Source of the DNA: Atherinomorus stipes
Taxonomy: Eukaryota; Chordata; Actinopteri; Atheriniformes; Atherinidae
Reading direction: 5' to 3'
Length of the DNA: 64,000 nt
Assembly: GCA_023101725.1 (NCBI GenBank)
Contig: JALJCO010012628.1
Span: forward strand, 17,624 to 81,623
Below the pieces are notes generated by a model. The model ran no database searches. It was given only the letters and a program-made list of their open reading frames with translations, and was not told the origin of the DNA. A program made the position numbers and the translations under genes. How positions within the stretch are numbered: position 1 is the first letter of the stretch; each line of letters begins with the position of its first letter. This document shows positions 1 through 35,500 of this stretch, piece by piece.

Positions 1-3000
1 TGGGACTGGATCTGGTCTTACCTGGGTGTGTACTCCAGGTGGGACTGGATCTGGTCTGGTCTTACCTGGGTGTATACTCCAGGTGGGACTGGATCTAGAT
101 CTGGTCTTACCTGGGTGTGTTCCCCAGGTGGGACTGGATCTGGTCTTACCTGGGTGTGTACTCCAGGTGGGACTGGATCTGGTCTGGTCTTACCTGGGTG
201 TGTACTCCAGGTGGGACTGGATCTAGATCTGGTCTTACCTGGGTGTGTTCCCCAGGTGGGACTGGATCTGGTCTTACCTGGGTGTGTACTCCAGGTGGGA
301 TTGGATCTGGTCTTACCTGGGTGTGTACTCCAGGTGGGACTGGATCTGGTAGTACCTGGGTGTATACTCCAGGTGGGACTGGATCTGGTCTTACCTGGGT
401 GTGTACTCCAGGTGGGACTGGATCTGGTCTTACCTGGGTGTGTACTCCAGGGTGGGACTGGATCTGGTAGTACCTGGGTGTGTACTCCAGGTGGGACTGG
501 ATCTGGTAGTACCTGGGTGTATACTCCAGGTGGGACTGGATCTGGTCTTACCTGGGTGTGTACTCCAGGTGGGACTGGATCTTGTCTTACCTGGGTGTGT
601 ACTCCAGGTGGGACTGGATCTGGTCTAACCTGGGTGTGTACTCCAAGTTGGACTGGATCTGGTCTTACCTGGGTGTGTACTCCAGGTTGGACTGGATCTG
701 GTCTTACCTGGTGTGTACTCCAGGTGGGACTGGATCTGGTCTTTCCAGGGTGTGTACTCCAGGTGGGACTGGATCTGGTCTTACCTGGGTGTGTACCCCA
801 TGTGGGACTGGATCTGGTCTTACCTGGGTGTGCACTCCAAGTTGGACTGGATCTGGTCTTACCTGGGTGTATACTCCTGGTGGGACTGGATCTGGTCTTA
901 CCTGGGTGTGCACTCCAGGTGGGACTGATCTTGTCTTACCTGGGTGTGTACTCCAGGTGGGACTGGATCTGGTCTTACCTGGGTGTGCACTCCAAGTTGG
1001 ACTGGATCTGGTCTTACCTGGGTGTGTACTCCAGGTGGGACTGGATCTGGTCTTACCTGGGTGTGCACTCCAAGTTGGACTGGATCTTGTCTTACCTGGG
1101 TGTGTACTCCAGGTGGGACTGGATCTGGTCTTACCTGGGTGTGCACTCCAAGTTGGACTGGATCTGGTCTTACCTGGGTGTGTACTCCAGGTGGGACTGG
1201 ATCTGGTCTTACCTGGGCGTGTACTCTAAGTGGGACTGGATCTGGTCTTACCTGGGTATGTACTCCAGGTGGGACTGGATCTGGTCTTACCTGGGTGTGT
1301 ACTCCAGGTGGGACTGGATCTGGTCTTACCTGGGTGTGTACTCCAGGTGGGACTGGATCTGGTCTTACCTGGGTGTGTACTCCAGATGGGACTGGATCTG
1401 GTCTTACCTGGGTGTGCACTCCAAGTTGGACTGGATCTGGTCTTACCTGGGTGTGTACTCCAGGTGGGACTGGATCTGGTCTTACCTGGGTGTGCACTCC
1501 AGGTGGGACTGGATCTTGTCTTACCTGGGTGTGTACTCCAGATGGGACTGGATCTGGTCTTACCTGGGTGTGCACTCCAGGTGGGACTGGATCTTGTCTT
1601 ACCTGGGTGTGTACTCCAGGTGGGACTGGATCTTGTCTTACCTGGGTGTGTACTCCAGGTGGGACTGGATCTGGTCTGACCTGGGTTTGTACTCCAGGTG
1701 GGACTGGATCTGGTCTTACCTGGGTGTGAATCTCCAGGTGGGACTGGATCTGGTCTTACCTGGGTGTGTACTCCAGGTGGGACTGGATCTGGTCTGACCT
1801 GGGTTTGTACTCCAGGTGGGACTGGATCTGGTCTTACCTGGGTGTGTACTCCAGGTGGGACTGGATCTGGTCTTAGCTGGGTTCACACTCCAGGTGGGAC
1901 TGGATCTGGTCTTACCTGGGTTTGTACTCCAGGTGGGACTGGGTCTGGTCTTACCTGGGTGTGTACTCCAGGTGGGACTGGATCTAGATCTGGTCTTACC
2001 TGGGTGTGTACTCCAGGTGGGACTGGATCTGGTCTTACCTGGGTGTGTACTCCAGGTGGGACTGGATCTGGTCTTACCTGGGTGTGTACTCCAGGTGGGA
2101 CTGGATCTGGTCTTACCTGGGTGTGTACTCCAGGTGGGACTGGATCTGGTCTTAACTGGGTGTTTACTCCAGGTGGGACTGGATCTGGTCTTACCTCGGT
2201 GTGTTCTCCAGGTGGGACTGGATCTGGTCTTACCTGGGTGTGTACTCCAGGTGGGACTGGATCTGGTCTTACCTGGGTGTATACTCCAGGTGGGACTGGA
2301 TCTGGTCTTACCTGGGTTGGTACTCCAGGTGGGACTGGATCTGGTCTTACCTGGGTGTGTACTCCAGGTGGGACTGGATCTGGTCTTACCTGGGTGTATA
2401 CTCCAGGTGGGACTGGATCTGGTCTTACCTGGGCGTGTACTCCAGGTGGGACTGGATCTGGTCTTACCTGGGTGTGTACTCCAGGTGGGACTGGATCTAG
2501 ATCTGGTCTTACCTGGGTGTGTACTCCAGGTGGGACTGGATCTGGTCTTACCTGGGTGTGTACTCCAGGTGGGACTGGATCTGGTCTTACCTGGGTGTGT
2601 ACTCCAGGTGGGACTGGGTCTGGTCTTACCTGGGTGTGTACTCCAGGTGGGACTGGATCTAGATCTGGTCTTACCTGGGTGTGTACTCCAGGTGGGACTG
2701 GATCTGGTCTTACCTGGGTGTGTACTCCAGGTGGGACTGGATCTGGTCTTACCTGGGTGTGTACTCCAGGTGGGACTGGATCTGGTCTTACCTGGGTGTT
2801 TACCTCCAGGTGGGACTGGATCTGGTCTTACCTCGGTGTGTTCTCCAGGTGGGACTGGATCTGGTCTTACCTGGGTGTGTACTCCAGGTGGGACTGGATC
2901 TGGTCTTACCTGGGTGTATACACCAGGTGGGACTGGATCTGGTCTTACCTGGGTTGGTACCCAGGTGGGACTGGATCTGGTCTTACCTGGGTTGGTACTC

Positions 3001-3571
3001 CAGGTGGGACTGGATCTGGTCTTACCTGGGTGTGTACTCCAGGTGGGACTGGATCTGGTCTTACCTGGGTGTATACTCCAGGTGGGACTGGATCTGGTCT
3101 TACCTGGGCGTGTACTCCAGGTGGGACTGGATCTGGTCTTACCTGGGTGTGTACTCCAGGTGGGACTGGATCTGGTCTTACCTGGGTGTGTACTCCAGGT
3201 GGGACTGGATCTGGTCTTACCTGGGTGTGTTCTCCAGGTGGGACTGGATCTGGTCTTACATGGGTGTGTTCTCCAGGTGGGACTGGATCTGGTCTTACCT
3301 GGGTGTGTACACCAGGTGGGACTGGATCTGGTCTTACCTGGGTTTGTAGTCCAGGTGGGACTGGATCTGGTCTTACCTGGGTGTGTACTCCAGGTGGGAC
3401 TGGATCTGGTCTTACCTGGGTGTGTACTCCAGGTGGGACTGGATCTGGTCTTACCTGGGTGTGTACTCCAGGTGGGACTGGATCTGGTCTTACCTGGGTT
3501 TGTAGTCCAGGTGGGACTGGATCTGGTCTTACCTGGGTGTGTACTCCAGGTGGGACTGGATCTGGTCTTAC
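1..3571 (-). repeat. 39-bp minisatellite in class II beta intron 3, made of exon end plus 5' splice site
   Basis: There are about 91 tandem copies of a 39-bp unit, running off the left edge. Read on the gene strand, each unit is CAGATCCAGTCCCACC, then TGGAGTACACACCCAG, then GTAAGAC. These are the last 32 nt of the beta-2 exon plus the first 7 nt of the intron, so nearly every unit carries a strong 5' splice site (CAG/GTAAGA). The array touches the exon with no spacer; the exon tail is its last unit. Some units have a 6-bp insert (TCTAGA context). At about 348, 466 and 505 the donor is replaced by GTACTAC, the exon-like form. Copies near the left edge are more varied than those near the exon. 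Confidence 0.96.
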
Positions 3572-6500
3572 CTGGGTGTGTACTCCAGGTGGGACTGGAT
3601 CTGGTAGTACCAGTCCCCGTCCTCCATCTCATCGGTGGAAGTGACATCAGAGGTGACCTCCTGTCCATCTCTGAGCCAGGTGACCCGGATGTGTTTGGGG
3701 TAGAAGTCGTAGATGCTGCAGACCAGCATGGCAGGATGACGACCAGCAGGGGGCGTGGTGGAGTACAGCCGGACGTAGGGTTCAGCTGGAACACAGACGA
3801 GGGTATTCATCACTATTTCATAGTAGAACTGTACAACATGTTGTTTTAGGGTCACATGGTTGGTACAGGGCGAAGCCGACACGTAAAGCCTCTGGAGTGT
3901 GTTACACCAGAACCGTTTGGTGGTAAAAAGGAACATCCAGACGCTGTTCTAGCAGATAAAAGCTGTTTTATTCTTCCTTTGACTTCCTCATCAGTAAAAC
4001 ATCATAGAGTGATAGAGTGTTTCTCGCCAAGCGGTCAAACCCAACGTGCCTTTCAGGTAAAACACACACCAATACGCACATCACTTCCTGTCTTATAGAC
4101 TTATAGACTGTCTTATAAACATTGGCTTCTACATACCGGCCCCTGATTGTTAGTCATGATTCTCAGCATTTCTACAAGTCAAGCAGGGCAAGTTTATCTG
4201 TACAGCACATTTCATGTACAGGACGATTCAAAGTGCTTCACATAAAACATTATCAACATTACAGTGGGGGACAGATAATAAGAACAAGAAAGTAGAAGCA
4301 TGACTTACAATTTAAAACATTAAAAATATTTAAGATTAAAAAGAGAGTATATAGAGTCGTGTGGATTTTAACTTTTGAGTAAATCTCTGAAGATGCAGCT
4401 GCGAACAGGAGGGTCTTTAATCTGGATTAAAATAAACTGTTCCAACTGATCTGAGACTTTCTGGGAGTTTGTTCCAGACATGTGGAGCATAGAAGCTGAA
4501 CACAGCAGATCCAGGTCTGGTCCTGATTCTGGAACTGATAAAAGACCGGATCCAGGTCTGGTTCTGACTCTGGAACTGATAAAAGACCGGATCCAGGTCT
4601 GGTTCTGACTCTGGAACTCATAAAAACCGGATCCAGGTCTGGTTTTGACTCTGGAACTGATAAAAAAAAAACGGATCCAGGTCTGGTTCTGACTCTGGGA
4701 ACTGATAAAAGACCGGATCCAGGTCTGGTTCTGACTCTGGAACTGGTAAAAAACGGATCCAGGTCTGGTTCTGACTCTGGGAACTGATAAAAGACCAGAT
4801 CTAGGTCTGGTTCTGACTCTGGAACTGATAAAAGACCAGATCCAGGTCTGGTTCTGACTCTGGAACTGATAAAAGACCGGATCCAGGTCTGGTACTGACT
4901 CTGGAACTGATAAAAGACCGGATCCAGGACTGGTTCTGACTCTGGAACTGATCAAAGACCGGATCCAGGTCTGGTTTTGACTCTGGAACTGATAAAAGAC
5001 CGGATCCAGGTCTGGTTTTGACTCTGGAACTGATAAAAGACCAGATCCAGGTCTGGTTCTGACACTGGAACTGATAAAAGACCGGATCCAGGTCTGGTTC
5101 TGACTCTGGAACTGATAAAAGACCGGATCCAGGTCTGGTTCTGACTCTGGAACTCATAAAAAACCGGATTCAGGTCTGGTTTTGACTCTGGAACTGATAA
5201 AAAAAACGGATCCAGGTCTGGTTCTGACTCTGGGAACTGATAAAAGACCGGATCCAGGTCTGGTTCTGACTCTGGAACTGGTAAAAAAAACGGATCCAGG
5301 TCTGGTTCTGACTCTGGGAACTGATAAAAGACCAGATCTAGGTCTGGTTCTGACTCTGGAACTGATAAAAGACCGGATCCAGGTCTGGTTCTGACTCTGG
5401 AACTGATAAAAGACCGGATCCAGGTCTGGTTCTGACTCTGGAACTCATAAAAAACCGGATCCAGGTCTGGTTTTGACTCTGGAACTGATAAAAAACGGAT
5501 CCAGGTCTGGTTCTGACTCTGGGAACTGATAAAAGACCGGATCCAGGTCTGGTTCTGACTCTGGAACTGGTAAAAAAAACGGATCCAGGTCTGGTTCTGA
5601 CTCTGGGAACTGATAAAAGACCAGATCTAGGTCTGGTTCTGACTCTGGAACTGATAAAAGACCAGATCCAGGTCTGGTTCTGACCCTGGAACTGATAAAA
5701 GACCGGATCCAGGTCTGGTACTGACTCTGGAACTGATAAAAGACCGGATCCAGGACTGGTTCTGACTCTGGAACTGATCAAAGACCGGATCCAGGTCTGG
5801 TTTTGACTCTGGAACTGATAAAAGACCGGATCCAGGTCTGGTTTTGACTCTGGAACTGATAAAAGACCAGATCCAGGTCTGGTTCTGACACTGGAACTGA
5901 TAAAAGACCGGATCCAGGTCTGGTTCTGACTCTGGAACTGATAAAAGACCGGATCCAGGTCTGGTTCTGATTCTTGAACTGATAAAAGACCGGATCCAGG
6001 TCTGGTTCTGACTCTGGAACTGATAAAAGACCAGATCCAGGTCTGGTTCTGACTTTGGAACTGATAAAAGACCAGATCCAGGTCTGGTTCTGACTCTGGA
6101 ACTGATAAAAGACCGGATCCAGGTCTGGTTCTGACTCTGGAACTGATAAAAGACCGGATCCCGGTCTGGTTCTGACTCTGGAACTGATAAAAGACCGGAT
6201 CCAGGTCTGGTTCTGACTCTGGAACTGATAAAAAACCAGATCCAGGTCTGGTTCTGACTCTGGAACTGATGAAAGACCTGATCCAGGTCTGGGTCTGGTT
6301 CTGGAACTGATAAAAGACCGGATCCAGGTCTGGTTCTGATTCTGGAACTGATAAAAGACCAGATCCAGGTCTGGTTCTGATTCTGGAACTGATAAAAGAC
6401 CAGATCCAGGTCTGGTTCTGAATCTGGAACTGATAAATGACCGGATCCAGGTCTGGTTCTGACTCTGGAACTGATAAAAGACCGGATCCAGGTCTGGTTC

Positions 6501-9500
6501 TGATTCTGGAACTGATAAAAGACCAGATCCAGGTCTGGTTCTGATTCTGGAACTGATAAAAGACCAGATCCAGGTCTGGTTCTGACTCTGGAACTGATAA
6601 AAGACCGGATCCAGGTCTGGTTCTGATTCTGGAACTGATAAAAGACCAGATCCAGGTCTGGTTCTGACTCTGGGAACTGATAAAAGACTGGATCCAGGTC
6701 TGGTTCTGATTCTTGAACTGATAAAAGACCAGATCCAGGTCTGGTTCTGACTTTGGAACTGATAAAAGACCAGATCCAGGTCTGGTTCTGATTCTGGAAC
6801 TGATAAAAGACCAGATCCAGGTCTGGTACTGACTCTGGAACTGATAAAAGACCGGATCCAGGTCTGGTTCTGACTCTGGAACTGATAAAAGACCAGATCC
6901 AGGTCTGTTTCTGATTCTGGAACTGATAAAAGACCAGATCCAGGTCTGGTTCTGACTTTGGAACTGATAAAAGACCAGATCCAGGTCTGGTTCTGACTCT
7001 GGAACAGATAAAAGACCAGATCCAGGTCTGGTTCTGACTCTTGAACTGATAAACGACCGGATCCAGGTCTGGTTCTGATTCTGGAACTGATAAAAGACCA
7101 GATCCAGGTCTGGTTCTGATTCTTGAACTGATAAACGACCGGATCCAGGTCTGGTTCTGATTCTGGAACTGATAAAAGACCGGATCCAGGTCTGGTTCTG
7201 ATTCTGGAACTGATAAAAGACCAGATCCAGGTCTGGTTCTGACTCTGGGAACTGATAAAAGACCGGATCCAGGTCTGGTTCTGATTCTTGAACTGATAAA
7301 AGACCAGATCCAGGTCTGGTTCTGACTTTGGAACTGATAAAAGACCAGATCCAGGTCTGGTTCTGATTCTGGAACTGATAAAAGACCAGATCCAGGTCTG
7401 GTTCTGACTTTGGAACTGATAAAAGACCAGATCCAGGTCTGGTTCTGATTCTTGAACTGATAAAAGACCGGATCCAGGTCTGGTTCTGACTTTGGAACTA
7501 ATAAAAGACCAGATCCAGATCTCTGGTTCTGACTCTGGAACTGATAAAAGACCGGATCCAGGTCTGGTTCTGACTCTGGAACTGATAAAAGACCGGATCC
7601 AGGTCTGGTTCTGACTCTGGAAGTGATAAAAGACCGGATGCAGGTCTGGTTCTGATTCTGGAACTGATAAAAGACCGGATCCAGGTCTGGTTCTGACTCT
7701 GGAACTGATAAAAACCGGATCCAGGTCTGGTTCTGACTCTGGGAACTGATACAAGACCGGATCCAGGTCTGGTTCTGACTCTGGAACTGATAAAAGACCG
7801 GATCCAGGTCTAGGTCTGACTCTGGGAACTGATCAAAGACCGGATCCAGGTCTGGTTCTGACTCTGGAACTGATAAAAGACCTGATCCAGGTCTGGGTCT
7901 GGTTCTGGAACTGATAAAAGACCAGATCCAGGTCTGGTTCTGATTCTGGAACTGATAAAAGACCAGATCCAGGTCTGGTTCTGACTCTGGAACTGATAAA
8001 TGACCGGATCCAGGTCTGGTTCTGATTCTGGAACTAATAAAAGACCGGATCCAGGTCTGGTTCTGACTCTGGAACTGATAAATGACCGGATCCAGGTCTG
8101 GTTCTGACTCTGGAACTGATAAAAGACCGGATCCAGGTCTGGTTCTGACTCTGGAACTAATAAATGACCGGATCCAGGTCTGGTTCTGACTCTGGAACTG
8201 ATAAATGACCGGATCCAGGTCTGGTTCTGATTCTGGAACTAATAAAAGACCGGATCCAGGTCTGGTTCTGATTCTGGAACTGATAAAAGACCAGATCCAG
8301 GTCTGGTTCTGACTCTGGAACTGATAAAAGACCGGATCCAGGTCTGGTTCTGACTCTGGAACTGATAAAAGACCGGATCCAGGTCTGGTTCTGACTCTGG
8401 AACTGCTAAAAAGACCGGATCCAGGTCTGGTTCTGACTCTGGAACTGATAAAAGACCGGATCCAGGTCTGGTTCTGATTCTGGAACTGATAAAAGACCAG
8501 ATCCAGGTCTGGTTCTGACTCTGGAACTGATAAAAGACCGGATCCAGGTCTGGTTCTGATTCTGGAACTGATAAAAGACCAGATCCAGGTCTGGTTCTGA
8601 CTCTGGAACTGATGAAAGACCGGATCCAGGTCTGGTTCTGACTTTGGAACTGATAAAAGACCAGATCCAGGTCTGGTTCTGACTCTGGAACAGATAAGAC
8701 TGGATCCAGGTCTGGTTCTGATTCTGGAACTGATAAAAGACCAGATCCAGGTCTGGTTCTGACTCTGGAACTGATAAAAGACCAGATCCAGGTCTGGTTC
8801 TGACTTTGGAACTGATAAAAGACCAGATCCAGGTCTGGTTCTGATTCTGGAACAGATAAAAGACTGGATCCAGGTCTGGTTCTGATTCTGGAACTGATAA
8901 AAGACCAGATCCAGGTCTGGTTCTGACTCTGGAACAGATAAAAGACCAGATCCAGGTCTGGTTCTGACTCTGGAACTGATAAAAGACTGGATCCAGGTCT
9001 GGTTCTGATTCTGGAACTGATAAATGACCGGATCCAGGTCTGGTTCTGATTCTGGAACTAATAAAAGACCGGATCCAGGTCTGGTTCTGACTCTGGAACT
9101 GATAAATGACCGGATCCAGGTCTGGTTCTGACTCTGGAACTGATAAAAGACCGGATCCAGGTCTGGTTCTGACTCTGGAACTAATAAATGACCGGATCCA
9201 GGTCTGGTTCTGACTCTGGAACTGATAAATGACCGGATCCAGGTCTGGTTCTGATTCTGGAACTAATAAAAGACCGGATCCAGGTCTGGTTCTGATTCTG
9301 GAACTGATAAAAGACCAGATCCAGGTCTGGTTCTGACTCTGGAACTGATAAAAGACCGGATCCAGGTCTGGTTCTGACTCTGGAACTGATAAAAGACCGG
9401 ATCCAGGTCTGGTTCTGACTCTGGAACTGCTAAAAGACCGGATCCAGGTCTGGTTCTGACTCTGGAACTGATAAAAGACCGGATCCAGGTCTGGTTCTGA

Positions 9501-11843
9501 TTCTGGAACTGATAAAAGACCAGATCCAGGTCTGGTTCTGACTCTGGAACTGATAAAAGACCGGATCCAGGTCTGGTTCTGATTCTGGAACTGATAAAAG
9601 ACCAGATCCAGGTCTGGTTCTGACTCTGGAACTGATGAAAGACCGGATCCAGGTCTGGTTCTGACTTTGGAACTGATAAAAGACCAGATCCAGGTCTGGT
9701 TCTGACTCTGGAACAGATAAGACTGGATCCAGGTCTGGTTCTGATTCTGGAACTGATAAAAGACCAGATCCAGGTCTGGTTCTGACTCTGGAACTGATAA
9801 AAGACCAGATCCAGGTCTGGTTCTGACTTTGGAACTGATAAAAGACCAGATCCAGGTCTGGTTCTGATTCTGGAACAGATAAAAGACTGGATCCAGGTCT
9901 GGTTCTGATTCTGGAACTGATAAAAGACCAGATCCAGGTCTGGTTCTGACTCTGGAACAGATAAAAGACCAGATCCAGGTCTGGTTCTGACTCTGGAACT
10001 GATAAAAGACTGGATCCAGGTCTGGTTCTGATTCTGGAACTGATAAAAGACCAGATCCAGGTCTGGTTCTGACTCTGGAACTGATAAAAGACCAGATCCA
10101 GGTCTGGTTCTGACTTTGGAACTGATAAAAGACCAGATCCAGGTCTGGTTCTGATTCTGGAACAGATAAAAGACTGGATCCAGGTCTGGTTCTGATTCTG
10201 GAACTGATAAAAGACTGGATCCAGGTCTGGTTCTGATTCTGGAACAGATAAAAGACCAGATCCAGGTCTGGTTCTGATTCTGGAACAGATAAAAGACTGG
10301 ATCCAGGTCTGGTTCTGACTCTGGAACAGATAAAAGACCAGATCCAGGTCTGGTTCTGACTTTGGAACTGATAAAAGACCAGATCCAGGTCTGGTTCTGA
10401 TTCTGGAACTGATAAAAGACCGGATCCAGGTCTGGTTCTGATTCTGGAACTGATAAAAGACCGGATCCAGGTCTGGTTCTGATTCTGGAACTGATAAAAG
10501 ACCGGATCCAGGTCTGGTTCTGATTCTGGAACTGATAAAAGACCGGATCCAGGTCTGGTTCTGATTCTGGAACTGATAAAAGACCAGATCCAGGTCTGGT
10601 TCTGATTCTGGAACTGATAAAAGACCAGATCCAGGTCTGGTTCTGATTCTGGAACTGATAAAAGACCGGATCCAGGTCTGGTTCTGATTCTGGAACTGAT
10701 AAAAGACCGGATCCAGGTCTGGTTCTGATTCTGGAACTGATAAAAGACCGGATCCAGGTCTGGTTCTGATTCTGGAACTGATAAAAGACCGGATCCAGGT
10801 CTGGTTCTGACACTGGAACTGATAAAAGACTAGATCCAGGTCCTCTGATCTGGTTCCAGTCTTCAGGATCACAGTGATCCAGGTTTCTGGGTCTCATTTC
10901 AAAGGTTTGGACCCAGAAACCTGGATCAGAGGTGGAACTGGATCCCAGATCTGGATCAGATCTTTAGGACCGGATCTGGTCTGGAAACCAGTTTCTGGGT
11001 CAAATCCTGGATCCTGGAGATGAAACCAGACCAGCAGCTGATCTGAGGTCACAGGTGCAGCCTGATCTTCATCATGATGAGGAAGAGGATGGAACACTCA
11101 CCTGATTTAGGCAGAATGTTGTTGTACCAGATCCCAATGTTGTGTTTGCAGTACGTCTCCTTCTGAGCTCTCTCACCAGCCAGAATTCCTTGATCTTTGT
11201 TCCAGGCTGCAGCGTTCTTCACTCCAAACTCCGTGTATCCTACATACTCTCCCACGCTGCTGTCAAACCTGATGATCTCCTTCTTGTTGAAGTAATACGA
11301 GTCGATGTACTCGATGTCGTTCAGATCAGTGGAGTTAAACACACACCGACCCACTCTATAATTCTCAAATCCATCTGGAACAGAAACAAGCTCAGTATTG
11401 ATCTCTGATCACATTATTGATGCTGAACATTCATTCATCAGGAACCAGAATATTGATCAGAGTATTGATTATCTATCAGTGATCAGTGATCAGTAAACAA
11501 GTTCCTCCTGATCATAAACCACCTGCAGCTCATTGATCAGAGTATTGATTATCTATCATTGATCAGTGATAAATAAACAAGTTCCTCCTGATCATAAACC
11601 ACCTGCAGCTCATCAATCAGAGTATTGATTATCTATCATTGATCAGTGATAAATAAACAAGTTCCTCCTGATCATAAACCACCTGCAGCTCATGGATCAG
11701 AGTATTGATCAGCCTACTGCCAGCAGCTGGATAAAGTCGTGAAGTACCAATAACATATTGATCAGTGATCAGTGAGTATTGATCCTACCTGCCGGGTAGA
11801 CGGTGATGAAGAGGAGGGTGAGGAGGAGGAAGGATGAAGCCAT
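1..11843 (-). CDS. DAB: MHC class II beta chain gene, partial (exons 1, 2 and first half of the beta-2 exon)
   Basis: The product would be the beta chain of the class II peptide-presenting heterodimer on antigen-presenting cells. Three exons are visible on the minus strand (11843-11789, 11374-11102, 3785-3572), with canonical splice sites and matching phases (1, 1, 2), giving 180 codons plus 2 nt. Residues 1-18 are a signal peptide, 19-109 the beta-1 domain, and 110-181 the first half of the immunoglobulin-like beta-2 domain. The second beta-2 cysteine, connecting peptide, membrane segment and tail must lie beyond the left edge. Introns 2 and 3 are swollen by minisatellites; intron 3 starts directly with a 39-bp array made from the exon end. 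The gene is head-to-head with the alpha gene at 12880, the expected partner. No frameshift or stop is seen in the visible exons. The DA lineage name is inferred from general similarity; the class II beta identity is firm. Confidence 0.93.
3572..3785 (-). CDS. DAB: MHC class II beta exon 3, first half of the beta-2 immunoglobulin domain
   Basis: The acceptor TGTGTTCCAG precedes 214 nt encoding residues 110-181, from AEPYVRLYSTTPPAGRHPAM to HLEYTPR. It contains the first Ig cysteine (Cys132 in LVCSIYDFYPK) and the Trp of VTWLRDG. The exon stops at CCCAG followed by GTAAGAC, in phase 2, before the second Ig cysteine. This matches the extra intron known to split the beta-2 exon in percomorph fishes. 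The last 32 nt of the exon plus the first 7 nt of the intron form the unit of the 39-bp array to the left. I place the exon end at the first donor because reading on gives an in-frame TAA two nucleotides later. Confidence 0.9.
3786..4184 (-). other. 3' end of class II beta intron 2, unique sequence
   Basis: This stretch leads into the exon 3 acceptor. It contains no array, and I see no gene or recognisable element in it. Short open frames here have no family features. Confidence 0.6.
4185..4504. mobile_element. Fragment of a dispersed teleost repeat, source of the adjoining 41-bp array
   Basis: The start (GCAAGTTTATCTGTACAGC, then TTCAAAGTGCTTCACATAAA) and the later text (GTTTGTTCCAGACATGTGGA, GAAGCTGAACACAGCAG) resemble a non-coding dispersed repeat that I recall as common in fish genomes. 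The element text runs without a break into the first copies of the 41-bp array, whose GGTTCTGACTCTGG belongs to the same element type. The family name is not recognised; identification is from memory of the pattern and would need a repeat-library search. Confidence 0.5.
4505..10830 (-). repeat. 41-bp minisatellite in class II beta intron 2
   Basis: There are about 154 tandem copies of a 41-bp unit of the form GGATCCAGGTCTGGTTCTGA followed by CTCTGGAACTGATAAAAGACC (plus strand). Variants alternate GACTCT with GATTCT, CCGG with CCAG, and ACTGATAAAAG with ACAGATAAAAG or ATAAATG. Larger blocks are themselves duplicated: a block at about 7980-8950 recurs about 1,023 bp to the right (for example ACTGCTAAAA at 8402 and 9425, CAGATAAGAC at 8691 and 9714). 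On the gene strand each unit contains TTTTATCAG and TTCCAG, which look weakly like 3' splice sites. The array makes up most of a 7.3-kb intron. Confidence 0.95.
10831..11101 (-). other. 5' part of class II beta intron 2
   Basis: The sequence directly after the exon 2 donor is rich in GGATC, CTGG and CCAGG words like those of the 41-bp array but not organised in units. It may be decayed array edge. No gene is seen. Confidence 0.5.
11102..11374 (-). CDS. DAB: MHC class II beta exon 2 (peptide-binding beta-1 domain)
   Basis: This 273-nt exon encodes residues 19-109, half of the peptide-binding groove. The acceptor is CTGTTCCAG and the donor GTGAGTGTTCC. Family hallmarks are all present: the GRCVFNST motif with Cys29 and the conserved N-glycosylation site Asn32-Ser-Thr, the YVGYTE strand, the helix segment with AAAWNKD, and the second cysteine Cys94 in ETYCKHN. 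This is the exon that normally carries most allelic polymorphism. It is open and looks functional. Confidence 0.95.
11375..11788 (-). repeat. Class II beta intron 1 with three 80-bp tandem repeats
   Basis: The 414-bp intron carries three near-identical 80-bp units at 11455-11534, 11535-11614 and 11615-11694, plus a partial fourth. Each starts near (G/A)ATCAGAGTATTGATTATC and ends with ACCTGCAGCTCAT. This is the only intron in the visible gene pair of ordinary size, yet it too has a young tandem repeat. Confidence 0.9.
11789..11843 (-). CDS. DAB: MHC class II beta exon 1 (signal peptide)
   Basis: The ATG at 11843 opens a 55-nt exon encoding MASSFLLLTLLFITVYPA, a classic hydrophobic signal peptide. 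It ends in phase 1 at a GTAGGATC donor (11781-11788). The split codon joins G to AT of exon 2 to give Asp19, the usual first mature residue region of fish class II beta chains. Start choice rests on the leader and on the position just downstream of the X-box promoter. Confidence 0.93.
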
Positions 11844-12879: not shown

Positions 12880-12937
12880 ATGATGAAGATGAAGCTGCTC
12901 CTCTTCCTCTGCTGGCTCCTCCGGGTCTCTGCTGACG
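12880..12937 (+). CDS. DAA: MHC class II alpha exon 1 (signal peptide)
   Basis: The ATG at 12880 begins [19 protein letters not shown], a hydrophobic leader, and the exon ends in phase 1 at GTGAGTTG. There are three Met codons within the first four residues; the first is taken. The tandem array of intron 1 starts about 8 bp after the splice site. Confidence 0.93.
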
Positions 12938-18900: not shown

Positions 18901-20590
18901 AATGTTAACTGACTGTTTATGATCCAGATGTTTACTGACTGTTGATGATCCAGATGTTTACTGACTGTTGATGATCCAGATGTTTACTGACTGTTTATGA
19001 CCCAGATGTTTACTGACCGTTTATGACCCAGATGTTTACTGACTGTTTATGATCCAGATGTTTACTGACTGTTTATGACCGAAATGTTTACTGACTGTTT
19101 ATGACCCAGATGTTTACTGACTGTTGATGATCCAGATCCCAAATGTTTACTGACTGTTAATGATCCAGATGTTTACTGACTGTTGATGATCCAGATGTTT
19201 ACTGACTGTTGATGATCCAGATGTTTACTGACTGTTTATGACCCAGATGTTTACTGACCGTTTATGACCCAGATGTTTACTGACTGTTTATGACCCAGAT
19301 GTTTACTGACCGTTTATGACCCAGATGTTTACTGACTGTTTATGATCCAGATGTTTACTGACTGTTTATGACCCAAATGTTTACTGACTGTTTATGACCC
19401 AGATGTTTACTGACTGTTGATGATCCAGATCCCAAATGTTTACTGACTGTTTATGACCCAGATGTTTACTGACTGTTGATGATCCAGATCCCAAATGTTT
19501 ACTGACTGTTTCTGATCCAGATGTTTACTGACTGTTTATGAACCAGATGTTTACTGACTGATAAACAAACAAACAGAGCAGGTAAACAATCATCTTCTAT
19601 GTGTTGCAGTTCTACATGAGGACCTGTCTATCGGTGGGTGTTCAGAGTCTGATGGAGAGAAGATGTACGCTCTGGATGGAGAGGAGCTGTGGTACGCTGA
19701 CTTCCAGCAGGGGAAAGGAGTCGAGCCTCAGCCTCCGTTTGTAGATCATATCAGCTACCCAGGAGCTTATGAAAACGCTGTGGGTGAGCTACAGATCTGC
19801 CAGTCAAACCTGGGGATTGCTCGTAAAGCCATGAAGGACTTTCCTGTGGAACGCGGTAAGCTCTGATCTTCATCTTCATCTTCCTCCTGTAGAAACTATC
19901 AGGCAGGTGATCACATGATCTGATCATAGACATGCAGCTGGTTTCCATGGTAACGTAGTCAAACATGATCAGCGGTTGGAGCTGTAACAGACATGATCTG
20001 GTCTAGAACTGATCATTACTGATCAATAACTGATCAGTTTCCACCACAAACTTTCCTCCAATCACACGTCTGATTTCTGGATGATGTCACCTCCAGAATC
20101 CCAGAGTCCAGGTCCTGGACCTCAGAGTCCTGCAGAGAAAGCTGTGTAGACCAGAAGATCTGGGACCAGGTCTTCATGTCCAGATGATGACGATGATGAT
20201 GATGACGATGATGATGATGAGGGTTTGATGGAGAACCAGCTTCACATGCAGGACAGTTCAGATGTTCATTCACCTTTTAGCCCCGCCCACTTTTCCAACA
20301 GAGGCGCTTCCATTTTCTCTCAGTTCTTCCGGTGAGGGTGTTCCTTAGTGGTGGGGGGATGAAGAACGTGCCTGAAAAGCTCCAGGAAAACACGTCTGGT
20401 CCCCCCCCCCCCCCCCGTTCTCATACCAGAGGGAGGATGACATCATCACCAGTCCCGTTTCCCTGAGAACTGTAGGTAGACCAGATCTAGCATCTGCTGA
20501 ACGTGTTGGGTGGCTGTATGAAAGCAGCCTTTCTGATGAAAATCCATCCTGGAAAGCTCCACCCAGCAGAAGCATCCCTGATCATCATCC

Positions 20591-20630
<40 letters not shown>

Positions 20631-23211
20631 CCAGATCAGATGTACTGAGGGAATCACATCTCTCCACGGATACGTCACTGAGCGGCAGCCGTGAGCCGCG
20701 GCAGGAATCAGGTGATGTGACGCCATCAGCTGATTTCTGGGCGCTGCGGCAGCAGATAGAACAGACCACGGAGAAAAACGCCGTCTGATTTTACTGAAAA
20801 TAAAAATAAAATCATTTCTAAGGTTTAAAAGTCGCCATGATCGGTTCATGAAGAACAAGAACATGTTCTTCCGAAAGCCGGCGTCAGTCCAAGTCCAGCG
20901 GCCTCTCACTGGGCCTGGGTGTTGGTACGAGCTAACAGAGCTAACAGAGCTAACGGGGCTAACGGGGCTAAAGCCCCATTCATACCCTACGGTAAATACG
21001 GATACGGACGCTTTCATTTGTATCCGGGGGGTCGTTGGGGGCAGTATAGAGTCTGAGTTTACCAATTCATGAAAATCGATGAAGAAGAGGGCATAAACCT
21101 GATGGTGCAAAACCTGACAGAACGATTGTGTGAGTTGGTGAGGGGGCGTATACACCTCTACGACGCAGCGGTACCCGGTCAGAGGGACAAACAACGCTGT
21201 AAGAACAGCTGGGAGGAAATATCAAGCCTGGGACTGACAGTAAAAGCGGCGCGAAACAAATGGAATTTAGCCAGGGACCGATATGTCCGCGCCCACAGAG
21301 ATGCGGTGGCGAAGAGGAGCGGTGATGCTGCTGGGGGGCCAGAGCATCCCATTCTACAGCGTTTGGCGTGATTACAGATCCACATCAAGCATCGTAACGC
21401 CTCCTCTAACTTTGATGTAAGTAACCTTTTGACTTCTTTGTAAAATGGTCTATATTGAGTTGTTTGTTGTTCGGGGATACTGTCCTTTAAATGATTGATA
21501 GTTGATAAATAAGTCGCTTTGGATAAAACTATATGCTACATGCAAAGTTTGCTTTCTAAAATCATGTAGGCTATTGGTAGCATGGGAATAAAAACACTTT
21601 TAATCAAACACACATCAGTGAGAAACTGTATAACCACAGGTTAAACATGGCAAAGGCCGTCCCTCTACCAACTGACCCAAATATTGTCTTTCTGAACATT
21701 TCTATGTCCCACACCAATCTAAATAGAAGTAGAAGTTTATGTTAATGTATTTCATATATGATTGTGTACTTCTAGAGTCAAGATCAAGCTGAGGAGGTGC
21801 AGCTGGAAGAGACAGAGGAGGAGGAGGAGGAGGAGGAGGTGCAGCTGGAAGAGACCGAGGAGGAGGAGGAGGAGGAGGAGGAGGAGGAGGAGGAGGAGGA
21901 GGTGCAGCTGGAAGAGACAGAGGAGGAGGAGGAGGAGGAGGAGGTGCAGCTGGAAGAGACCGAGGAGGAGGAGGAGGAGGAGGAGGAGGAGGAGGAGGAG
22001 GAGGAGGGTACACTGCCTGCAGAATCCTCTGTGCCAAAAGCAGTACCACCACCAGCTGATGCTGGAAGCCTCCCCCCTTCTCAGAGCCCCCAGCCTGGAG
22101 CCTCCAAGAAGAGGAAAAGACAGGCAGAGGTTGATCCAGTCGATGCTGCTCTGTTGGAGAGACTGGCAGAGGAACAGCGCGAGTCACAGCAGAGCAAGAA
22201 TGTGTTCAGCACTTCCACGTCTTCCCTGAACACTTTTCTCCAGGACCTACCTCCTGCAGATGCCAAGAAACTGATGAAGCAGATCCAGGAGCTAATGCTT
22301 TCATATGGATGGTCATAGATGTATCTGCAGTTCTGCTGAACTATTGTTAGAATTGTTATAATATAACATTATATTGTTATATTGTTGTTCAGTACTGTTT
22401 TTATACAGTTTTTCTCAGCTGTTGCACTTTAGTGCTAAAAATAAACAAGCACTCTAACATTTGTTTGTTGTCATTTAAGTATTATAACCACACTTTGTAT
22501 AGATTATAGCCATGGACTGTATATAAAAAAAACAGTATTTTATGTTAGTGGAAAACATTCACTGAAAACATTTCATATTGCAGCATTACAATAACAACAA
22601 CAATAACATGTTTATCAAATGGTCAAACAGACATTCAGGTTACGTTATGTAGAGTGCCACATCTGACATGCCGATCCTGCCAATCGATCCTTCCTTGATC
22701 CGTCTGGAAGTACTCCTTAAAAATCTCCCTGACAGTCATGCCATCCTGAGTGGCTCTTGTGGCTGTGAAGCGGCGGGTCGGGATGAGGTTGGTGTCTCCC
22801 TGGACCACCTGTCTCCACTCTCCAGGTGGACCATCCCTGGAGGTATGCGGCGGCTTTGTTCGGGCAGGTCTTGGTCTCCCTTCATCAAAAAATTGTGGAG
22901 CACCACACAAGCCTTTGTGACGTCCTCCGCCGTGTCAACAGAACACGCCATAGCCCCCCCCAGTATGCGCCACCTGGCAGCTAGAATGCCGAAGGCATTT
23001 TCCATGACCCGCCTTGCACGTGAATGCCGGAAATTATAAACCTTCTGGTCGTGAGTCAGTTGCTGAGATCCTATTAAGAGAAAAATTATATTAGAAAACC
23101 CTGGTCTTTCTCAAAACAATACAAATGCAGCCAGAATTAAAGAGCATATTATAGGTCCATGGACCAAGCACTGTATATGGAAGGGCTGGAAAATACTTGC
23201 TGTTGTATAAG

Positions 23212-23253
<42 letters not shown>

Positions 23254-23349
23254 ATATATATCTATATATATATATACTGTGTGTATATATATATATATAC
23301 TGTGTATATATATATATATATGTATACACAGTATATATATATATATATA

Positions 23350-23385
<36 letters not shown>

Positions 23386-23560: not shown

Positions 23561-23595
<35 letters not shown>

Positions 23596-29500: not shown

Positions 29501-32500
29501 GTTGCTGCGACAGAAGGTGTCACAGTCAGAGCTGAAGCTGTTTATTCCTACAGTATGAATAAAGTACTTATCTTATTAAAATAAGTGTGATTCATTAGTT
29601 TTTAATATGTAGCCTATAGGCTGTTCTACGCACCTGGGTATGGGCGCATGAGGTTGACCTTTTGGGGGAGGGCCTCATCAGCTACAAACACCGGTGGTGT
29701 CAGCACATCTGTCCCAGGCAGAGGGGCGTATGGTGGCAGGGGGAGTTGGCCTTGGATGAGCTGCGCTCCAAAGTTGGTCCGACTGAAGACACCAGCATCA
29801 CTTTCCTTGCCGAACGCTCCAATGTGGACAAATGTAAAGCGGTAGTTGGCATCACAGGCTGCCATCATCACGAAGCTGAAAAATCCTTTGTAGTTGAAAA
29901 AACTACTGCCACTGTTGGCTGGCGCTTTGATGCGGACGTGCTTGCCGTCGATCGCTCCGATACAGTTGGGGTAATCCCACTGCGTCCAAAACCCATCACG
30001 TATCACCTCCCACCCGTCGCCTTGCGGGTACTTCGCCTCATCCTCCAGCCCAGCCCACAGAGCCCGACACACCTCCTTAATGATGGTAGAAACTGTCGCT
30101 GTCCCCAGTTTATAGCTCGCGGCGAGGGCTTGCTGGCTGATCCCTGCTGCCAGAAAACGTAACGTGACCGCCAGACGCTCAGCATCACTGACAGGGGCTC
30201 TGTGGGATGCGGCATGTTGAATGAGCGGCGATACCCGGCGTAGTAAGCTGTCAAAAGTTACGGTAGCCATCCTGAAATACAGAAATGGCGCTCATCATCC
30301 AATTCCCGCATTGACAAAACCAAAGAAAAAAAATCCCCATTTATATGGCGATTTACATGAAGTGGTCAGACATGCCACCGCCGCGTACACTTATTTTTTT
30401 CCCACCTTTTCTGTAGTAGACGCAGCAAAACTACCTCCTCTATCGATGCCATATTCGCGATTATCGATGCCGGAAAATTTCGACGCAACACTGCCCTCTA
30501 GAGTTTGAACGGAGTAACATTCATAACAACGCTGAAACCGGACGGAGGTATGTAGACCAGTAGCGGAGACAATGTTTGGTACGGACGGGACAATTTCGTC
30601 CGTATCCAGAGGTATGAAGCAAGCTTAACGGAGCCAACGGAGCTAACGGGGCTAACGGAGCTAACGGGGCTAACGGAGCTAATGGAGCTAATGGAGCTAA
30701 CAGAGCTAACGGAGCTAACGGGGCTAATGGAGCTAATGGAGCTAACAGAGCTAATGGAGCCAACGGAGCTAACAGAGCTAACAGAGCTAACGGAGCTAAC
30801 AGAGCTAACGGAGCTAACGGAGCTAATGGAGCTAACGGAGCTAATGGAGCAAACAGAGCTAACGGTGCTAACGGGGCTAACGGAGCTAATGGAGCAATCG
30901 GGGCTAACGGAGCTAACGGAGCTAACGGGGCTAATGGAGCTAACAGGGCTAATGCCAGGATGCTCTGGTATGCAGGGATGGGACGGTCCTGCAGCCAAGC
31001 AGCCGCCATGTTGTGGAGAGGATGTTTATCTTAAGAAAACAGGACTTTATGATCTGTACAATTATTATTTCACCAGGTAGCGGTTAGCAAGAGGGATGGG
31101 TACCAAAACCTGGTATCAAAATGGCGCCGGGGCCGAGTCCGATGGTCCACCTGGACCGATAAGCTTCAGTCTGACTGGTCCTCTTATCGGTACCTGCAGT
31201 TAAGGTCGTTCTCAGTTTGTGCAGCAGACTAGCTAAGACATGATCTAACCTCCTCCTGAACAAGTACCCATGCTGCAGGACTGGAAGGAGGCTGCTGCAC
31301 TCTCACATGTCCACCCCCCTCCATGGAGGAGCTCCCTCACCAGCAGGAACAGCTGTGATGGCAGAGCAGTCTGGCTCCAGATGTTCATGTTATGGCTGGC
31401 TACTCTGTCTCTGTGGGAAGTCCTCAACCTTAAATCAAACTCCCCAAATCAGCAACTCTGCCGCACCTGCAGCCTGAAGCTGGTTGCTGCTAAACGTTGC
31501 TCAGCAGCAGGAGATCATGTCAATGTTAGCAGCTCTGAGAAGAGAGGGGAGCCCCATGATGATAACGATGGAGAGAGAGGGGCGTCCCACAGACAGATGC
31601 AGAGCAAAGAAAGCCAGACAGCTGTTTGGGCTGATGGTGGGAAATGTTGGATTGTTACATTTATTTTCTATCTGAACCGGTTTTTGTTGCTCACTATGAA
31701 AAACTTTAATAAAGATTACAGCAGCTAAACTCTAAACATTTAACCTGTAAAGTGCCACCTGCAGCAGGAACGTACACATGTACAGAACAGAACTGATGGG
31801 TCAGGAAGTGTTGTTTTACTTTTTAGAGTTCTGGCATATAGAAACGTAATACTCCAACAGTACAAAAATATACACTAATATTCATGTTTAGTATAATTAC
31901 TATTATGGATAACCATTTTATCCATTTTATGGATCTAACCCTAACCCCTCTATATGAAAAACTTCAATAAAGATTACAGCAGCTAAACTCTAAACATTTA
32001 ACCTGTAAAATGGTGTTCCTGTCCTCAGATCCTCCGTCCAGCCTGATCATCTACACCAGAGACTTTGTGGAACCGGAGGTGAAGAACTCCCTGATCTGCC
32101 ACGTGTCCGGGTTCTACCCTGCTCCTGTCAAAGTCCACTGGACCAAGAACGGAGAGAAAGTGACCGACGGAACCAGCATCAACGTCCCCTTCCCCAACAA
32201 AGACGGGTCCTTCACCCAGATCTCCAGACTGGCCTTCGTCCCCCAGCAGGGAGACATCTACACCTGTACAGTGGAGCATCTGGCCCTGACCCAGTCCCAG
32301 ACCCGGATCTGGGGTAAGACCTGGATCTGGACACGCAGACCTCCATGAGGACGTCCATGTCTCTGTGTTCTGTCTCCATGAGGAGGTCCATGTCTCTGTT
32401 TTCTGTCTCTATGAGGAGGTCCATGTCTCTGTCTTCTTTCTCCATGAGGAGGTCCATGTCTCTGTTTCATGTCTCCATGAGGAGGTCCATGTCTCTGTTT

Positions 32501-35500
32501 TCTTTCTCTATGAGGAGGTCCATGTCTCTGTGTTCTGTCTCCATGAGGAGGTCCATGTCTCTGTGTTCTGTCTCCATGAGAAGGTCCATGTCTCTGTGTT
32601 CTGTCTCCATGAGGAGGTCCATGTCTCTGTGTTCTGTCTCCATGAGGAGGTCCATGTCTCTGTGTTCTGTCTCCATGAGGAGGTCCATGTCTCTGTTTTC
32701 TGTCTCCATGAGGAGGTCCATGTCTCTGTGTTCTGTCTCTATGAGGAGGTCCATGTCTCTGTCTTCTGTCTCTATGAGGAGGTCCATGTCTCTGTGTTCT
32801 GTCTCTATGAGGAGGTCCATGTCTCTGTCTTCTGTCTCCATGAGGAGGTCCATGTCTCTGTCTTCTGTCTCCATGAGGAGGTCCATGTCTCTGTTTTCTG
32901 TCTCTGTGAGGAGGTCCATGTCTCTGTTTCCTGTCTCTGATGAGGAGGTCCATGTCTCTGTTTTCTGTCTCCATGAGAAGGTCCATGTCTCTGTCTTCTG
33001 TCTCCATGAGGAGGTCCATGTCTCTGTTTTCTGTCTCCATGAGGAGGCTCCATGTCTCTGTGTTCTTGTCTCCATGAGGAGGTCCATGTCTCTGCTCTTC
33101 TTTCTCCATGAGGAGGTCCATGTCTCTGTTTTCTGTCTCCATGAGGAGTTCCATGTCTCTGTTTCCTGTCTCTATGAGGGAGGTCCATGTCTCTGTTTTC
33201 TGTCTCCATGAGGAGGTCCATGTCTCTGTGTTCTGTCTCCATGAGAAGGTCCATGTCTCTGTCTTCTTTCTCCATGAGGAGGTCCATGTCTCTGTTTTCT
33301 GTCTCCATGAGGAGGTCCATGTCTCTGTTTCCTGTCTCTATGAGGAGGTCCATGTCTCTGTTTTCTGTCTCCATGAGAAGGTCCATGTCTCTGTCTTCTG
33401 TCTCCATGAGGAGGTCCATGTCTCTGTTTTCTTTCTCCATGAGGAGGGCCATGTCTCTGTCTTCTGTCTCCATGAGAAGGTCCATGTCTCTGTCTTCTGT
33501 CTCCATGAGGAGGTCCATGTCTCCTGTTTTCTTTCTCCATGAGGAGGGCCATGTCTCTGTTTTCTTTCTCATGAGGAGGGCCATGTCTCTGTTTTCTGTC
33601 TCCATGAGAAGGTCCATGTCTCTGTCTTCTGTCTCCATGAGGAGGTCCATGTCTCTGTTTTCTGTCTCCATGAGAAGGTCCATGTCTCTGTCTTCTGTCT
33701 CTATGAGGAGGTCCATGTCTCTGTCTTCTTTCTCCATGAGGAGGTCCATGTCTCTGTTTTCTGTCTCCATGAGGAGGTCCATGTCTCTGTTTTCTGTCTC
33801 CATGAGGAGGTCCATGTCTCTGTTTTCTGTCTCCATGAGGAGGTCCATGTCTTTGTTTTCTGTCTCCATGAGAAGGTCCATGTCTCTGTCTTCTGTCTCC
33901 ATGAGGAGGTCCATGTCTCTGTTTTCTTTCTCCATGAGGAGGTCCATGTCTCTGTTTTCTGTCTCCATGAGAAGGTCCATGTCTCTGTCTTCTGTCTCCG
34001 TGAGGAGGTCCACGCTCTCTGTTTTCTGTCTCTATGAGGAGGTCCATGTCTTTGTTTTCTGTCTCCATGAGAAGGTCCATGTCTCTGTCTTCTGTCTCCA
34101 TGAGGAGGTCCATGTCTCTGTCTTCTGTCTCCATGAGGGAGGTCCATGTCTCTGTTTTCTGTCTCTGAGGAGGTCCATGTCTCTGTCTTCTTTCTCCATG
34201 AGGAGGTCCATGTCTCTGTTTTCTGTCTCCATGAGGAGGTCCATGTCTCTGTTTTCTGTCTCCATGAGAAGGTCCATGTCTCTGTCTTCTGGCTCCATGA
34301 GGAGGTCCATGTCTCTGTTTTCTTTCTCCATGAGGAGGGCCATGTCTCTGTTTTCTGTCTCCATGAGAAGGTCCATGTCTCTGTCTTCTCTCCATGAGAA
34401 GGTCCATGTCTCTGTTTTCTGTCTCCATGAGGAGGTCCATGTCTCTGTTTTTCTGTCTCCATGAGGAGGTCCATGTCTCTGTTTTCTGTCTCCATGAGGA
34501 GGTCCATGTCTTTGTTTTCTGTCTCCATGAGAAGGTCCATGTCTCTGTCTTCTGTCTCCATGAGGAGGTCCATGTCTCTGTTTTCTTTCTCCATGGAGGA
34601 GGTCCATGTCTCTGTTTTCTGTCTCCCATGAGAAGGTCCATGTCTCTGTCTTCTGTCTCCGTGAGGGGGTCCATGTCTCTGTTTTCTTTCTCTATGAGGA
34701 GGTCCATGTCTCTGTTTTCTTTCTCCATGAGGAGGTCCATGTCTCTGTTTTCTGTCTCCATGAGGAGGTCCATGTCTCTGTTTTCTGTCTCCATGAGGAG
34801 GTCCATGTCTTTGTTTTCTTTCTCCATGAGGAGGGCCCCCTGTCTCTGTTTTCTGTCTCCATGAGAAGGTCCATGTCTCTGTCTTCTGTCTCCATGAGGA
34901 GGTCCATGTCTCTGTTTTCTGTCTCCATGAGGAGGTCCATGTCTTTGTTTTCTGTCTCCATGAGAAGGTCCATGTCTCTGTCTTCTGTCTCCATGAGGAG
35001 GTCCATGTCTCTGTTTTCTTTCTCCATGAGGAGGTCCATGTCTCTGTTTTCTGTCTCCATGAGAGGGTCCATGTCTCTGTCTTCTGTCTCCGTGAGGAGG
35101 TCCATGTCTCTGTTTTCTGTCTCTATGAGGAGGTCCATGTCTCTGTTTTCTGTCTCCATGAGGAGGTCCATGTCTCTGTCTTCTGTCTCCATGAGGAGGT
35201 CCATGTCTTTGTTTTCTGTCTCCATGAAGGTCCATGTCTCTGTCTTCTGTCTCCATGAGGAGGTCCATGTCTCTTTCTTTTCTGTCTCATGAGGAGGTCC
35301 ATGTCTCTGTTTTTTTGTCTCCATGAGAAGGTCCATGTCTCTGTCTTCTGTCTCCATGAGGAGGTCCATGTCTCTGTTTTCTGTCTCTATGAGGAGGTCC
35401 ATGTCTCTGTCTTCTTTCTCCATGAGGAGGTCCATGTCTCTGTCTTCTGTCTCCATGAGGAGGTCCATGTCTCTGTCTTCTGTCTCCATGAGGAGGTCCA

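What the first reader, a model, noticed from the sequence alone, without database searches (positions are those of the whole stretch)
1..3785. A minisatellite built from an exon end and its 5' splice site
On the beta gene strand each 39-bp unit is the last 32 nt of the beta-2 exon plus GTAAGAC. About 90 strong donor sites (CAG/GTAAGA) therefore follow the true one in an unbroken array. Only the first gives the normal protein; the next in-frame codon after it is TAA. This is a natural tandem test of 5' splice-site choice in an essential immune gene, and I know of no described case like it.
Basis: partly seen in the sequence, partly recalled or inferred. Interest (0 to 1): 0.88.

Follow-up and report, generated by a model that had tools for sequence, protein, structure and literature searches.

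The report
Exon end and splice signal, repeated hundredfold
In a fish immune gene (MHC class II beta), the end of one coding exon together with its splice signal is repeated head to tail about a hundred times, so 87 more full copies of the signal follow the first one; the cell likely has to use the first every time, which would make this gene a natural test of how splice sites are chosen.

Summary
The window lies in a fish genome (G000:C6622). The beta-2a exon (window 3572-3785, minus) ends CCCAG|GTAAGA. A 39-bp unit (last 32 exon bases plus GTAAGAC) then repeats for 4.0 kb, past the window edge: 100 full units, 88 with CAG|GTAAG (87 decoys). A second copy of the gene (C2036, likely the other haplotype) has 116 units and 96 decoys. 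Both genes have open reading frames. Related proteins run LEYTPR-SGEKISC uninterrupted, so the first donor is the true exon end; reading past it meets TAA at once. Most decoys match the true site in strength, none of the array scored as an acceptor, and flanking introns are 7.3 and 8.7 kb. Exon definition would therefore likely pick the first donor, as published minigenes with two identical donors do. No RNA was available. The novelty claim needs trimming: this is a known extra intron of spiny-rayed fishes, and short splice-motif repeats in it are published. New here are the size, the coding unit and the recurrence: in this genome a kalirin-like gene and a ZP-domain gene also have minisatellites made of exon end plus donor. 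New variant of a known kind.

The parts
3572..3785 (-). beta-2a exon (exon 3) of the MHC class II beta gene, 214 nt, ends ...LEYTP + AG
   Evidence: spliced model and homologs
3566..3571 (-). true 5' splice site, CAG|GTAAGA
   Evidence: next exon found at C6622:12462
1..3611 (-). in-window part of the 39-bp exon-end-plus-donor array (its first 40 bases, 3572-3611, are exon); continues to C6622:17254
11102..11374 (-). beta-1 exon (exon 2), 273 nt
11789..11843 (-). beta leader exon (exon 1), 55 nt of coding sequence
4508..10842 (-). 41-bp minisatellite in beta intron 2; 128 acceptor-like sites in the gene's sense by a recalled matrix
12880..12937 (+). leader exon of the divergent MHC class II alpha gene
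   Evidence: sequence and start/donor positions
19610..19855 (+). alpha-1 exon (PF00993, 6.4e-23)
32029..32313 (+). alpha-2 exon; open in the right frame. The Pfam scan used a wrong frame and found nothing, so the name rests on the translation and position
45103..45224 (+). last alpha coding exon (connecting peptide, transmembrane, stop)
32341..45102 (+). 33-bp minisatellite of alpha intron 3, whose last unit is the true 3' splice site

Best explanation
The 39-bp array is a minisatellite built from the end of a coding exon plus its 5' splice site, and splicing is likely to use only its first donor because the exon would be recognised as a unit from its single upstream acceptor. Shown: unit make-up, about 100 copies, most decoys as strong as the true site, open reading frames in two gene copies, TAA directly after the first donor, flanking introns of 7.3 and 8.7 kb, no acceptor-like site in the array at the threshold used. 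Inferred: with long introns, cross-exon pairing picks the donor nearest the acceptor, so the 214-nt exon would beat exons of 253 nt and more. A leak to donor 2 or later would carry the stop and is predicted to be removed by nonsense-mediated decay. The array would then be a tolerated by-product, with at most a small cost in expression. Inferred for its origin: repeated unequal exchange or slippage between near-repeats GGTACTACCAG (in the exon) and GGTAAGACCAG (at the junction), possibly helped by a hairpin that each unit can form.
For: First donor is the true exon end. Two gene copies with open frames, each with its own array. Decoys equal in strength: 87 of 99 and 96 of 115 array units pair with U1 as well as the true site. 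No acceptor scoring 7 or more in the array, recalled matrix. Intron lengths fit exon definition; in PMC9225289 (abstract and Results part 1 read) five minigenes with two identical strong donors used the upstream one exclusively, and long-intron events with near-equal donors prefer the upstream site. Exchange between exon and array: three C6622 units carry the exon's GGTACTACCAG.
Against: No RNA. The same paper reports about 60% downstream preference before donor strength is controlled, and in long-intron exons too; its experiments had two donors, not 88. The true donor is not predicted to be more open than decoys: rank 86 of 88 and 94 of 97 with a 150-nt window, 43 of 88 and 38 of 97 with 80 nt. 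Donor columns are not depleted of good donors (rank 19 and 24 of 39), which fits harmless decoys but does not show that they are unused. Hairpins are not peculiar to this array: the 49-bp array folds as well against its shuffles.
Confidence: 0.6

Rival explanations
1. Rheostat: neighbouring decoys capture a real share of transcripts, which carry the TAA and are degraded, so the number and pattern of intact donors would tune how much class II beta each haplotype makes.
For: Decoys are full strength from the second unit on; donor 2 would make an exon of only 253 nt. Intronic repeats can direct splicing (TERT, PMC3948165, abstract), and a minisatellite is reported to affect class II beta expression in brook charr (PMC3891768, passage citing Croisetiere 2010).
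Against: Minigenes with identical donors used the upstream site exclusively (PMC9225289). No measurement in this species.
Confidence: 0.2
2. Intron-proximal rule: the spliceosome would favour the donors nearest the downstream acceptor, so much of the array would be kept in mRNA and the gene would be largely silenced by its array.
For: Downstream donors are favoured in about 60% of human events overall (PMC9225289).
Against: Both gene copies keep open frames, and their beta-1 exons differ at 43 of 273 bases while exons 4 and 5 differ at 0 of 68 and 1 of 114, the pattern of a working, polymorphic class II gene. The last donor lies 4820 nt from the acceptor and 4126 nt from the exon start, a setting for exon definition.
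Confidence: 0.07
3. U1 platform: the many U1 sites would help the long intron, by recruiting splicing factors or by blocking premature polyadenylation.
For: About 88 good U1 sites in 4 kb.
Against: Intron 3 has no AATAAA and two ATTAAA, both beyond the array, so there is little to block there; donor columns are not conserved above others.
Confidence: 0.06
4. Assembly artefact: the array is inflated or misplaced.
For: The assembly is in 7656 contigs and no reads are at hand; copy number of tandem arrays is easily misassembled.
Against: Two contigs carry the gene, each with an array at exactly this junction, with 43 and 35 unit types of which 7 are shared and no shared run of four or more units that includes a variant, and matching sequence on both sides of the array.
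Confidence: 0.05

Closest known systems
Extra intron 3 of class II B in perch-like fishes, with CCAGGT repeats (Figueroa et al. 1995, cited in PMC4394517) and GTCCAGTTGA repeats in flounders (PMC4394517)
   Same: Same intron, same place in the gene; the repeats hold 5' and 3' splice motifs, and CCAGGT is the junction sequence itself here.
   Different: Units of 6 and 10 bases and introns of 86-770 bp in the croaker and flounder papers (155 bp to 5 kb in Midas cichlid). Here the unit is 39 bp with 32 coding bases, about 100 copies, full-strength donors, an 8.7-kb intron. Figueroa 1995 was not held; I know it from passages citing it.
Intron gain by tandem duplication of an AGGT-bearing exon piece (Rogers model; fission yeast 24-bp repeats with introns spanning several copies; PMC4974935, passages read)
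   Same: Tandem copies of exon sequence carrying AG|GT next to an intron.
   Different: There the repeats make a new intron. Here the intron is older and the repeats lengthen it; the array shows no acceptor-like site at the threshold used.
Minisatellite of the brook charr class II beta gene (Croisetiere 2010, cited in PMC3891768)
   Same: Minisatellite acting in cis on the same kind of gene.
   Different: I did not read that paper; in the passage seen there is no mention of splice sites in its unit.
TERT intron 6 38-bp repeats (PMC3948165, abstract)
   Same: Variable intronic minisatellite with an effect on splicing.
   Different: Acts more than 1 kb from exon junctions by RNA pairing; its units are not exon ends.
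Two-donor minigenes under exon definition (PMC9225289)
   Same: Identical strong CAG/guaag donors behind one acceptor, exon-defined.
   Different: Two engineered donors against about 88 natural ones.

Membership tests
MHC class II B gene of teleosts | beta-1 domain and C1-set beta-2 domain in an open frame with transmembrane exon | tested here: met
   PF00969 and PF07654 above cut-off; six-exon model in both copies
MHC class II B gene of teleosts | expression at the cell surface with an alpha chain | not testable with these tools
   no RNA or protein data; an alpha gene lies beside it
Extra intron 3 of acanthopterygian class II B | intron splits the beta-2 domain between LEYTPR and SGEKISC | tested here: met
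   exons of 214 and 68 nt with the junction in the R codon; six of eight other beta-2 hits in this genome were looked at and have no intron here
Extra intron 3 of acanthopterygian class II B | repeats containing splice motifs inside the intron | tested here: met
   39-bp units with CAG|GTAAG
Minisatellite | head-to-tail units of 10-100 bp, variable between alleles | tested here: met
   100 and 116 full units, 7 shared unit types; that the two contigs are alleles is likely, not shown
Intron gained by tandem AGGT duplication | both splice sites of the intron come from duplicated copies | tested here: not met
   the acceptor TTGCAG|GTCTGG lies 4.8 kb beyond the last array donor and is not an array unit
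Exon-defined choice of the nearest donor | use of the donor nearest the upstream acceptor in RNA | not testable with these tools
   no transcripts at hand

The most novel reading that the evidence does not exclude
Splice donors of coding exons seed minisatellites in this fish genome. The exon-intron junction is duplicated again and again, the exon end belongs to the array and trades sequence with it, and cells ignore scores of perfect donors because exon definition looks only for the nearest one. The array is then both a live record of how introns lengthen and a reservoir that can rewrite the last eleven codons of the exon.
Probability: 0.3. Interest if true: 0.82.

Novelty: new variant of a known kind. 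Interest (0 to 1): 0.68.

Why it matters
Choice among several good splice donors has been studied mostly with a few engineered sites. Here nature supplies 88 donors behind one acceptor, in two gene copies, in a gene whose correct splicing should matter for immunity. If only the first is used, exon definition is stricter than pairwise tests can show; if not, the array would set the output of an immune gene. A ZP-domain gene in the same genome, with nine donors in a 398-nt intron, would be the short-intron contrast. Recurrence in three genes suggests that exon-intron junctions can nucleate minisatellites, one way in which introns may grow.

Tried and rejected
RNA structure as the discriminator: not supported, the true donor is not predicted to be more open than decoys. 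Selection against decoys: no sign. Coding constraint on array units: distinct substitutions in the first 30 columns are 7 synonymous, 15 non-synonymous and 1 stop in C6622, and 6, 13 and 3 in C2036, against 20, 65 and 5 possible; no clear constraint. A third array on C902: chance match inside a (CTGGAT)n array. Shielding from polyadenylation: little support. Relatives with an insert at the junction: none among the 120 listed of 1169. Alpha-2 and last alpha exon on C2036: no match in C2036 1-45800. Complete list of donor arrays: only the broad pattern search was answered and its list of 100 rows stops at C1704; narrower patterns did not complete. In one search my score for the beta-1 acceptor was misaligned and is not used. 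Literature: 9 of 10 paper searches; I saw no donor-bearing coding minisatellite in their listings, but Figueroa 1995 and most subscription papers are not held (one search was a wrong identifier of mine).
Full report
What was checked. The window is G000:C6622:17624-81623 of a 1.18-Gb genome in 7656 contigs. The best matches of its class II beta protein are silverside and rainbowfish chains (best 80%, Melanotaenia boesemani), so the owner is likely an atherinomorph-like fish; no tool names the species.

The gene. On the minus strand lies an MHC class II beta gene: leader (window 11789-11843), beta-1 (11102-11374), beta-2a (3572-3785) and, beyond the window, beta-2b (C6622:12462-12395), connecting/transmembrane (12302-12189) and a proposed last exon GRILVPTN-stop from 11514, chosen among three candidate frames. 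The predicted product is 249 aa with PF00969 and PF07654 matches and resembles solved HLA class II beta chains. A divergent alpha gene sits beside it. A second copy on C2036 has the same exons, also open; the five exons compared differ at 1/55, 43/273, 8/214, 0/68 and 1/114 bases. The array search hit only these two contigs apart from a chance match on C902, and the two best beta-2 hits are the same two. Other arrays also appear twice in the assembly (same units on C265 and C1518, on C730 and C1381), so C6622 and C2036 are likely two haplotypes of one locus; paralogy is not excluded.

The true exon end. One search gave eight further beta-2 hits; I looked at six (three on C4803, two on C1671, one on C6438), not at the two weakest (C4560, C3688). 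In all six the exon runs through this position without an intron, five in frame and the second C1671 copy one base out of frame. Among the 120 best of 1169 related proteins, 115 match a junction pattern with 7 (114) or 8 (1) residues between LEYTP and CxVEH; the other 5 missed the pattern by substitutions and have no insert either. In C6622 the acceptor TTGCAG|GTCTGGAGAG restores R-S-G-E-K-I-S-C exactly. So the first donor is the true one.

The array. Wrap-around alignment gives 3981 bp and 100 full units in C6622, and 4588 bp and 116 full units in C2036; both begin inside the exon at GGTACTAC and end in a partial unit at the same column. These counts include the exonic first unit. Exact consensus: 37 of 100 and 28 of 116; CAG|GTAAG: 88 and 97; GT: 97 and 113. 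Without the true donor this makes 87 and 96 decoys. In the window alone CAGGTAAGA occurs 79 times against 0.90 expected; the other 60 kb of the window hold one CAGGTAAG on each strand. The commonest spacing is 39 nt, and reading on from the exon gives ...LEYTPR-stop at once. By recalled weight matrices the in-window array holds 84 donors scoring 7 or more in the gene's sense, 78 of them at least as high as the true site, and no acceptor of 7 or more; its other strand holds 79 such donors and 4 such acceptors; the other six long arrays of the window hold no such donor on either strand.

Decoys versus the true site. U1 pairing is equal or stronger in 87 of 99 array units (C6622) and 96 of 115 (C2036); donor columns are neither more nor less diverged than others (rank 19 and 24 of 39). 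Predicted openness does not favour the true site: it ranks 86 of 88 and 94 of 97 with a 150-nt window, 43 of 88 and 38 of 97 with 80 nt. So position is the only feature found that sets the true donor apart.

Mechanism. Flanking introns are 7316 and 8732 nt in C6622, 2369 and 9471 nt in C2036, a setting for exon definition. In PMC9225289 (abstract and Results part 1 read) events with long flanking introns and near-equal donors favour the upstream donor, and five minigenes with two identical CAG/guaagu donors used the upstream one exclusively. Before strength is controlled the same paper finds about 60% downstream preference, the strongest published argument against my reading. Applied here, the 214-nt exon would be preferred to the 253-, 292- and 331-nt exons of donors 2-4. 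A transcript using donor 2 would carry the TAA about 35 nt before its own junction, with another junction 68 nt beyond (arithmetic), so decay is predicted. The application to this gene is inference throughout.

Turnover and origin. The arrays share 7 unit types (of 43 and 35) and no run of four or more units that includes a variant; the printed C2036 string shows a block of roughly 25 units twice with small changes. Three C6622 units, and none in C2036, carry GGTACTACCAG, the exon's own upstream sequence, joined to CCCA: a mark of exchange between exon and array. Units with the exon's ACG codon of C2036 are 14 of 115 there and 3 of 99 in C6622 (p 0.02, but units are not independent). Each unit can fold into a hairpin in which ACCTGG pairs with CCAGGT of the donor (two units as RNA, z -5.3; as DNA, z -4.4). 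Of the six other arrays tested, the 49-bp (z -4.6) and 41-bp (z -3.0) ones also fold better than their shuffles and four do not, so the hairpin may help expansion but does not single this array out.

Not alone. A pattern of three CAGGTAAG with 15-45-base gaps matched 416 times forward and 588 reverse in this genome, against 145 and 103 for the backward-read control. Matches overlap, this gene's two arrays are among them, and a few arrays dominate (C1226 gives 52 of the 100 listed rows), so these are not counts of arrays. The list stops at C1704; it shows 13 arrays by my count, with two pairs that look like haplotype copies. I held DNA for 8 of the 13 and looked at the first donor of each. Two start at a coding exon: C140, a kalirin-like spectrin-repeat exon (PF23323, 4.5e-27; PDB search weak) followed by units CTGAGGTCCAGGCATCAG|GTAAGGTC with 14 CAG|GTAAG including the first; and C863, a ZP-C domain exon (PF00100 5.3e-13; GP2 and uromodulin structures) followed by 22-bp units GTCCTGATCCAG|GTAAGACCAG, nine CAG|GTAAG including the first in a proposed 398-nt intron. 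For the other six I could not tell whether an exon precedes.

What is known. PMC4394517 (passages read) describes the extra intron 3 of class II B in Percomorpha and Atherinomorpha, cites Figueroa 1995 for CCAGGT repeats with splice motifs in it, and reports decamer repeats in flounders. Published lengths of this intron: about 86 bp (PMC3162010, passages), 136-770 bp (PMC4394517), 155 bp to 5 kb (PMC5310070, passages). PMC4974935 (passages) reviews intron gain by tandem AGGT duplication, including fission yeast 24-bp repeats. PMC3948165 (abstract) reports that intronic 38-bp repeats direct TERT splicing. The present array is a much enlarged case in this circle, with a coding unit and full-strength donors: a new variant of a known kind.

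Limits. No reads, no RNA, no species name, no DNA of this exon from related species; splice-site scores rest on recalled matrices; copy number depends on the assembly.

Noticed in passing
window 32341-45102 (+): Mirror image in the alpha gene: the 33-bp array of intron 3 (381 copies by TRF) ends in the true acceptor, and that last unit differs from the consensus by two substitutions and one base; units read TCTC[CT]ATGAG 331 times where the true acceptor reads TCTCCAG, which occurs once in 32315-45120. Unlike the beta donors, these acceptors look disabled.
   Followed up: partly
window 4508-10842 (-): The 41-bp array of beta intron 2, upstream of the same exon, holds 128 acceptor-like sites scoring 7 or more in the gene's sense (the true beta-2a acceptor scores 7.7) and no such donor (recalled matrix).
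   Followed up: partly
L024 (C140) and L049 (C863): Minisatellites made of exon end plus 5' splice site also follow a kalirin-like exon and a ZP-domain exon.
   Followed up: partly
L042 (C730), L050 (C1021): Arrays whose unit joins an acceptor-like tract directly to a donor: a 50-bp unit with TTTTCCTTCCACAG|GTAAGC (7.8 copies) and a 39-bp unit that looks like a whole tiny intron, GTAAGT...TCTCTTTCAG (3.2 copies). Recursive splicing could be looked for there.
   Followed up: no
window 20400-31000: Alpha intron 2 holds transposon remains: a DDE_Tnp_4 (Harbinger-type) frame at 29626-30270 (-) and LINE-like frames with RVT_1 (25517-26086) and weaker endonuclease matches (26951-27571).
   Followed up: partly
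window 53154-64000: A 32-bp array of about 340 copies runs to the right edge; seven long arrays fill 41.5 of the window's 64 kb.
   Followed up: no
C6622:12799-14333 (L010 3999-5533): A second, 62-bp array lies in the same beta intron 3, near its acceptor; the C2036 copy has a similar one.
   Followed up: no
window 1-3570 (+): The opposite strand of the 39-bp array also carries donors (CAG|GTGGGA 77 times), because the unit is nearly an inverted repeat.
   Followed up: no
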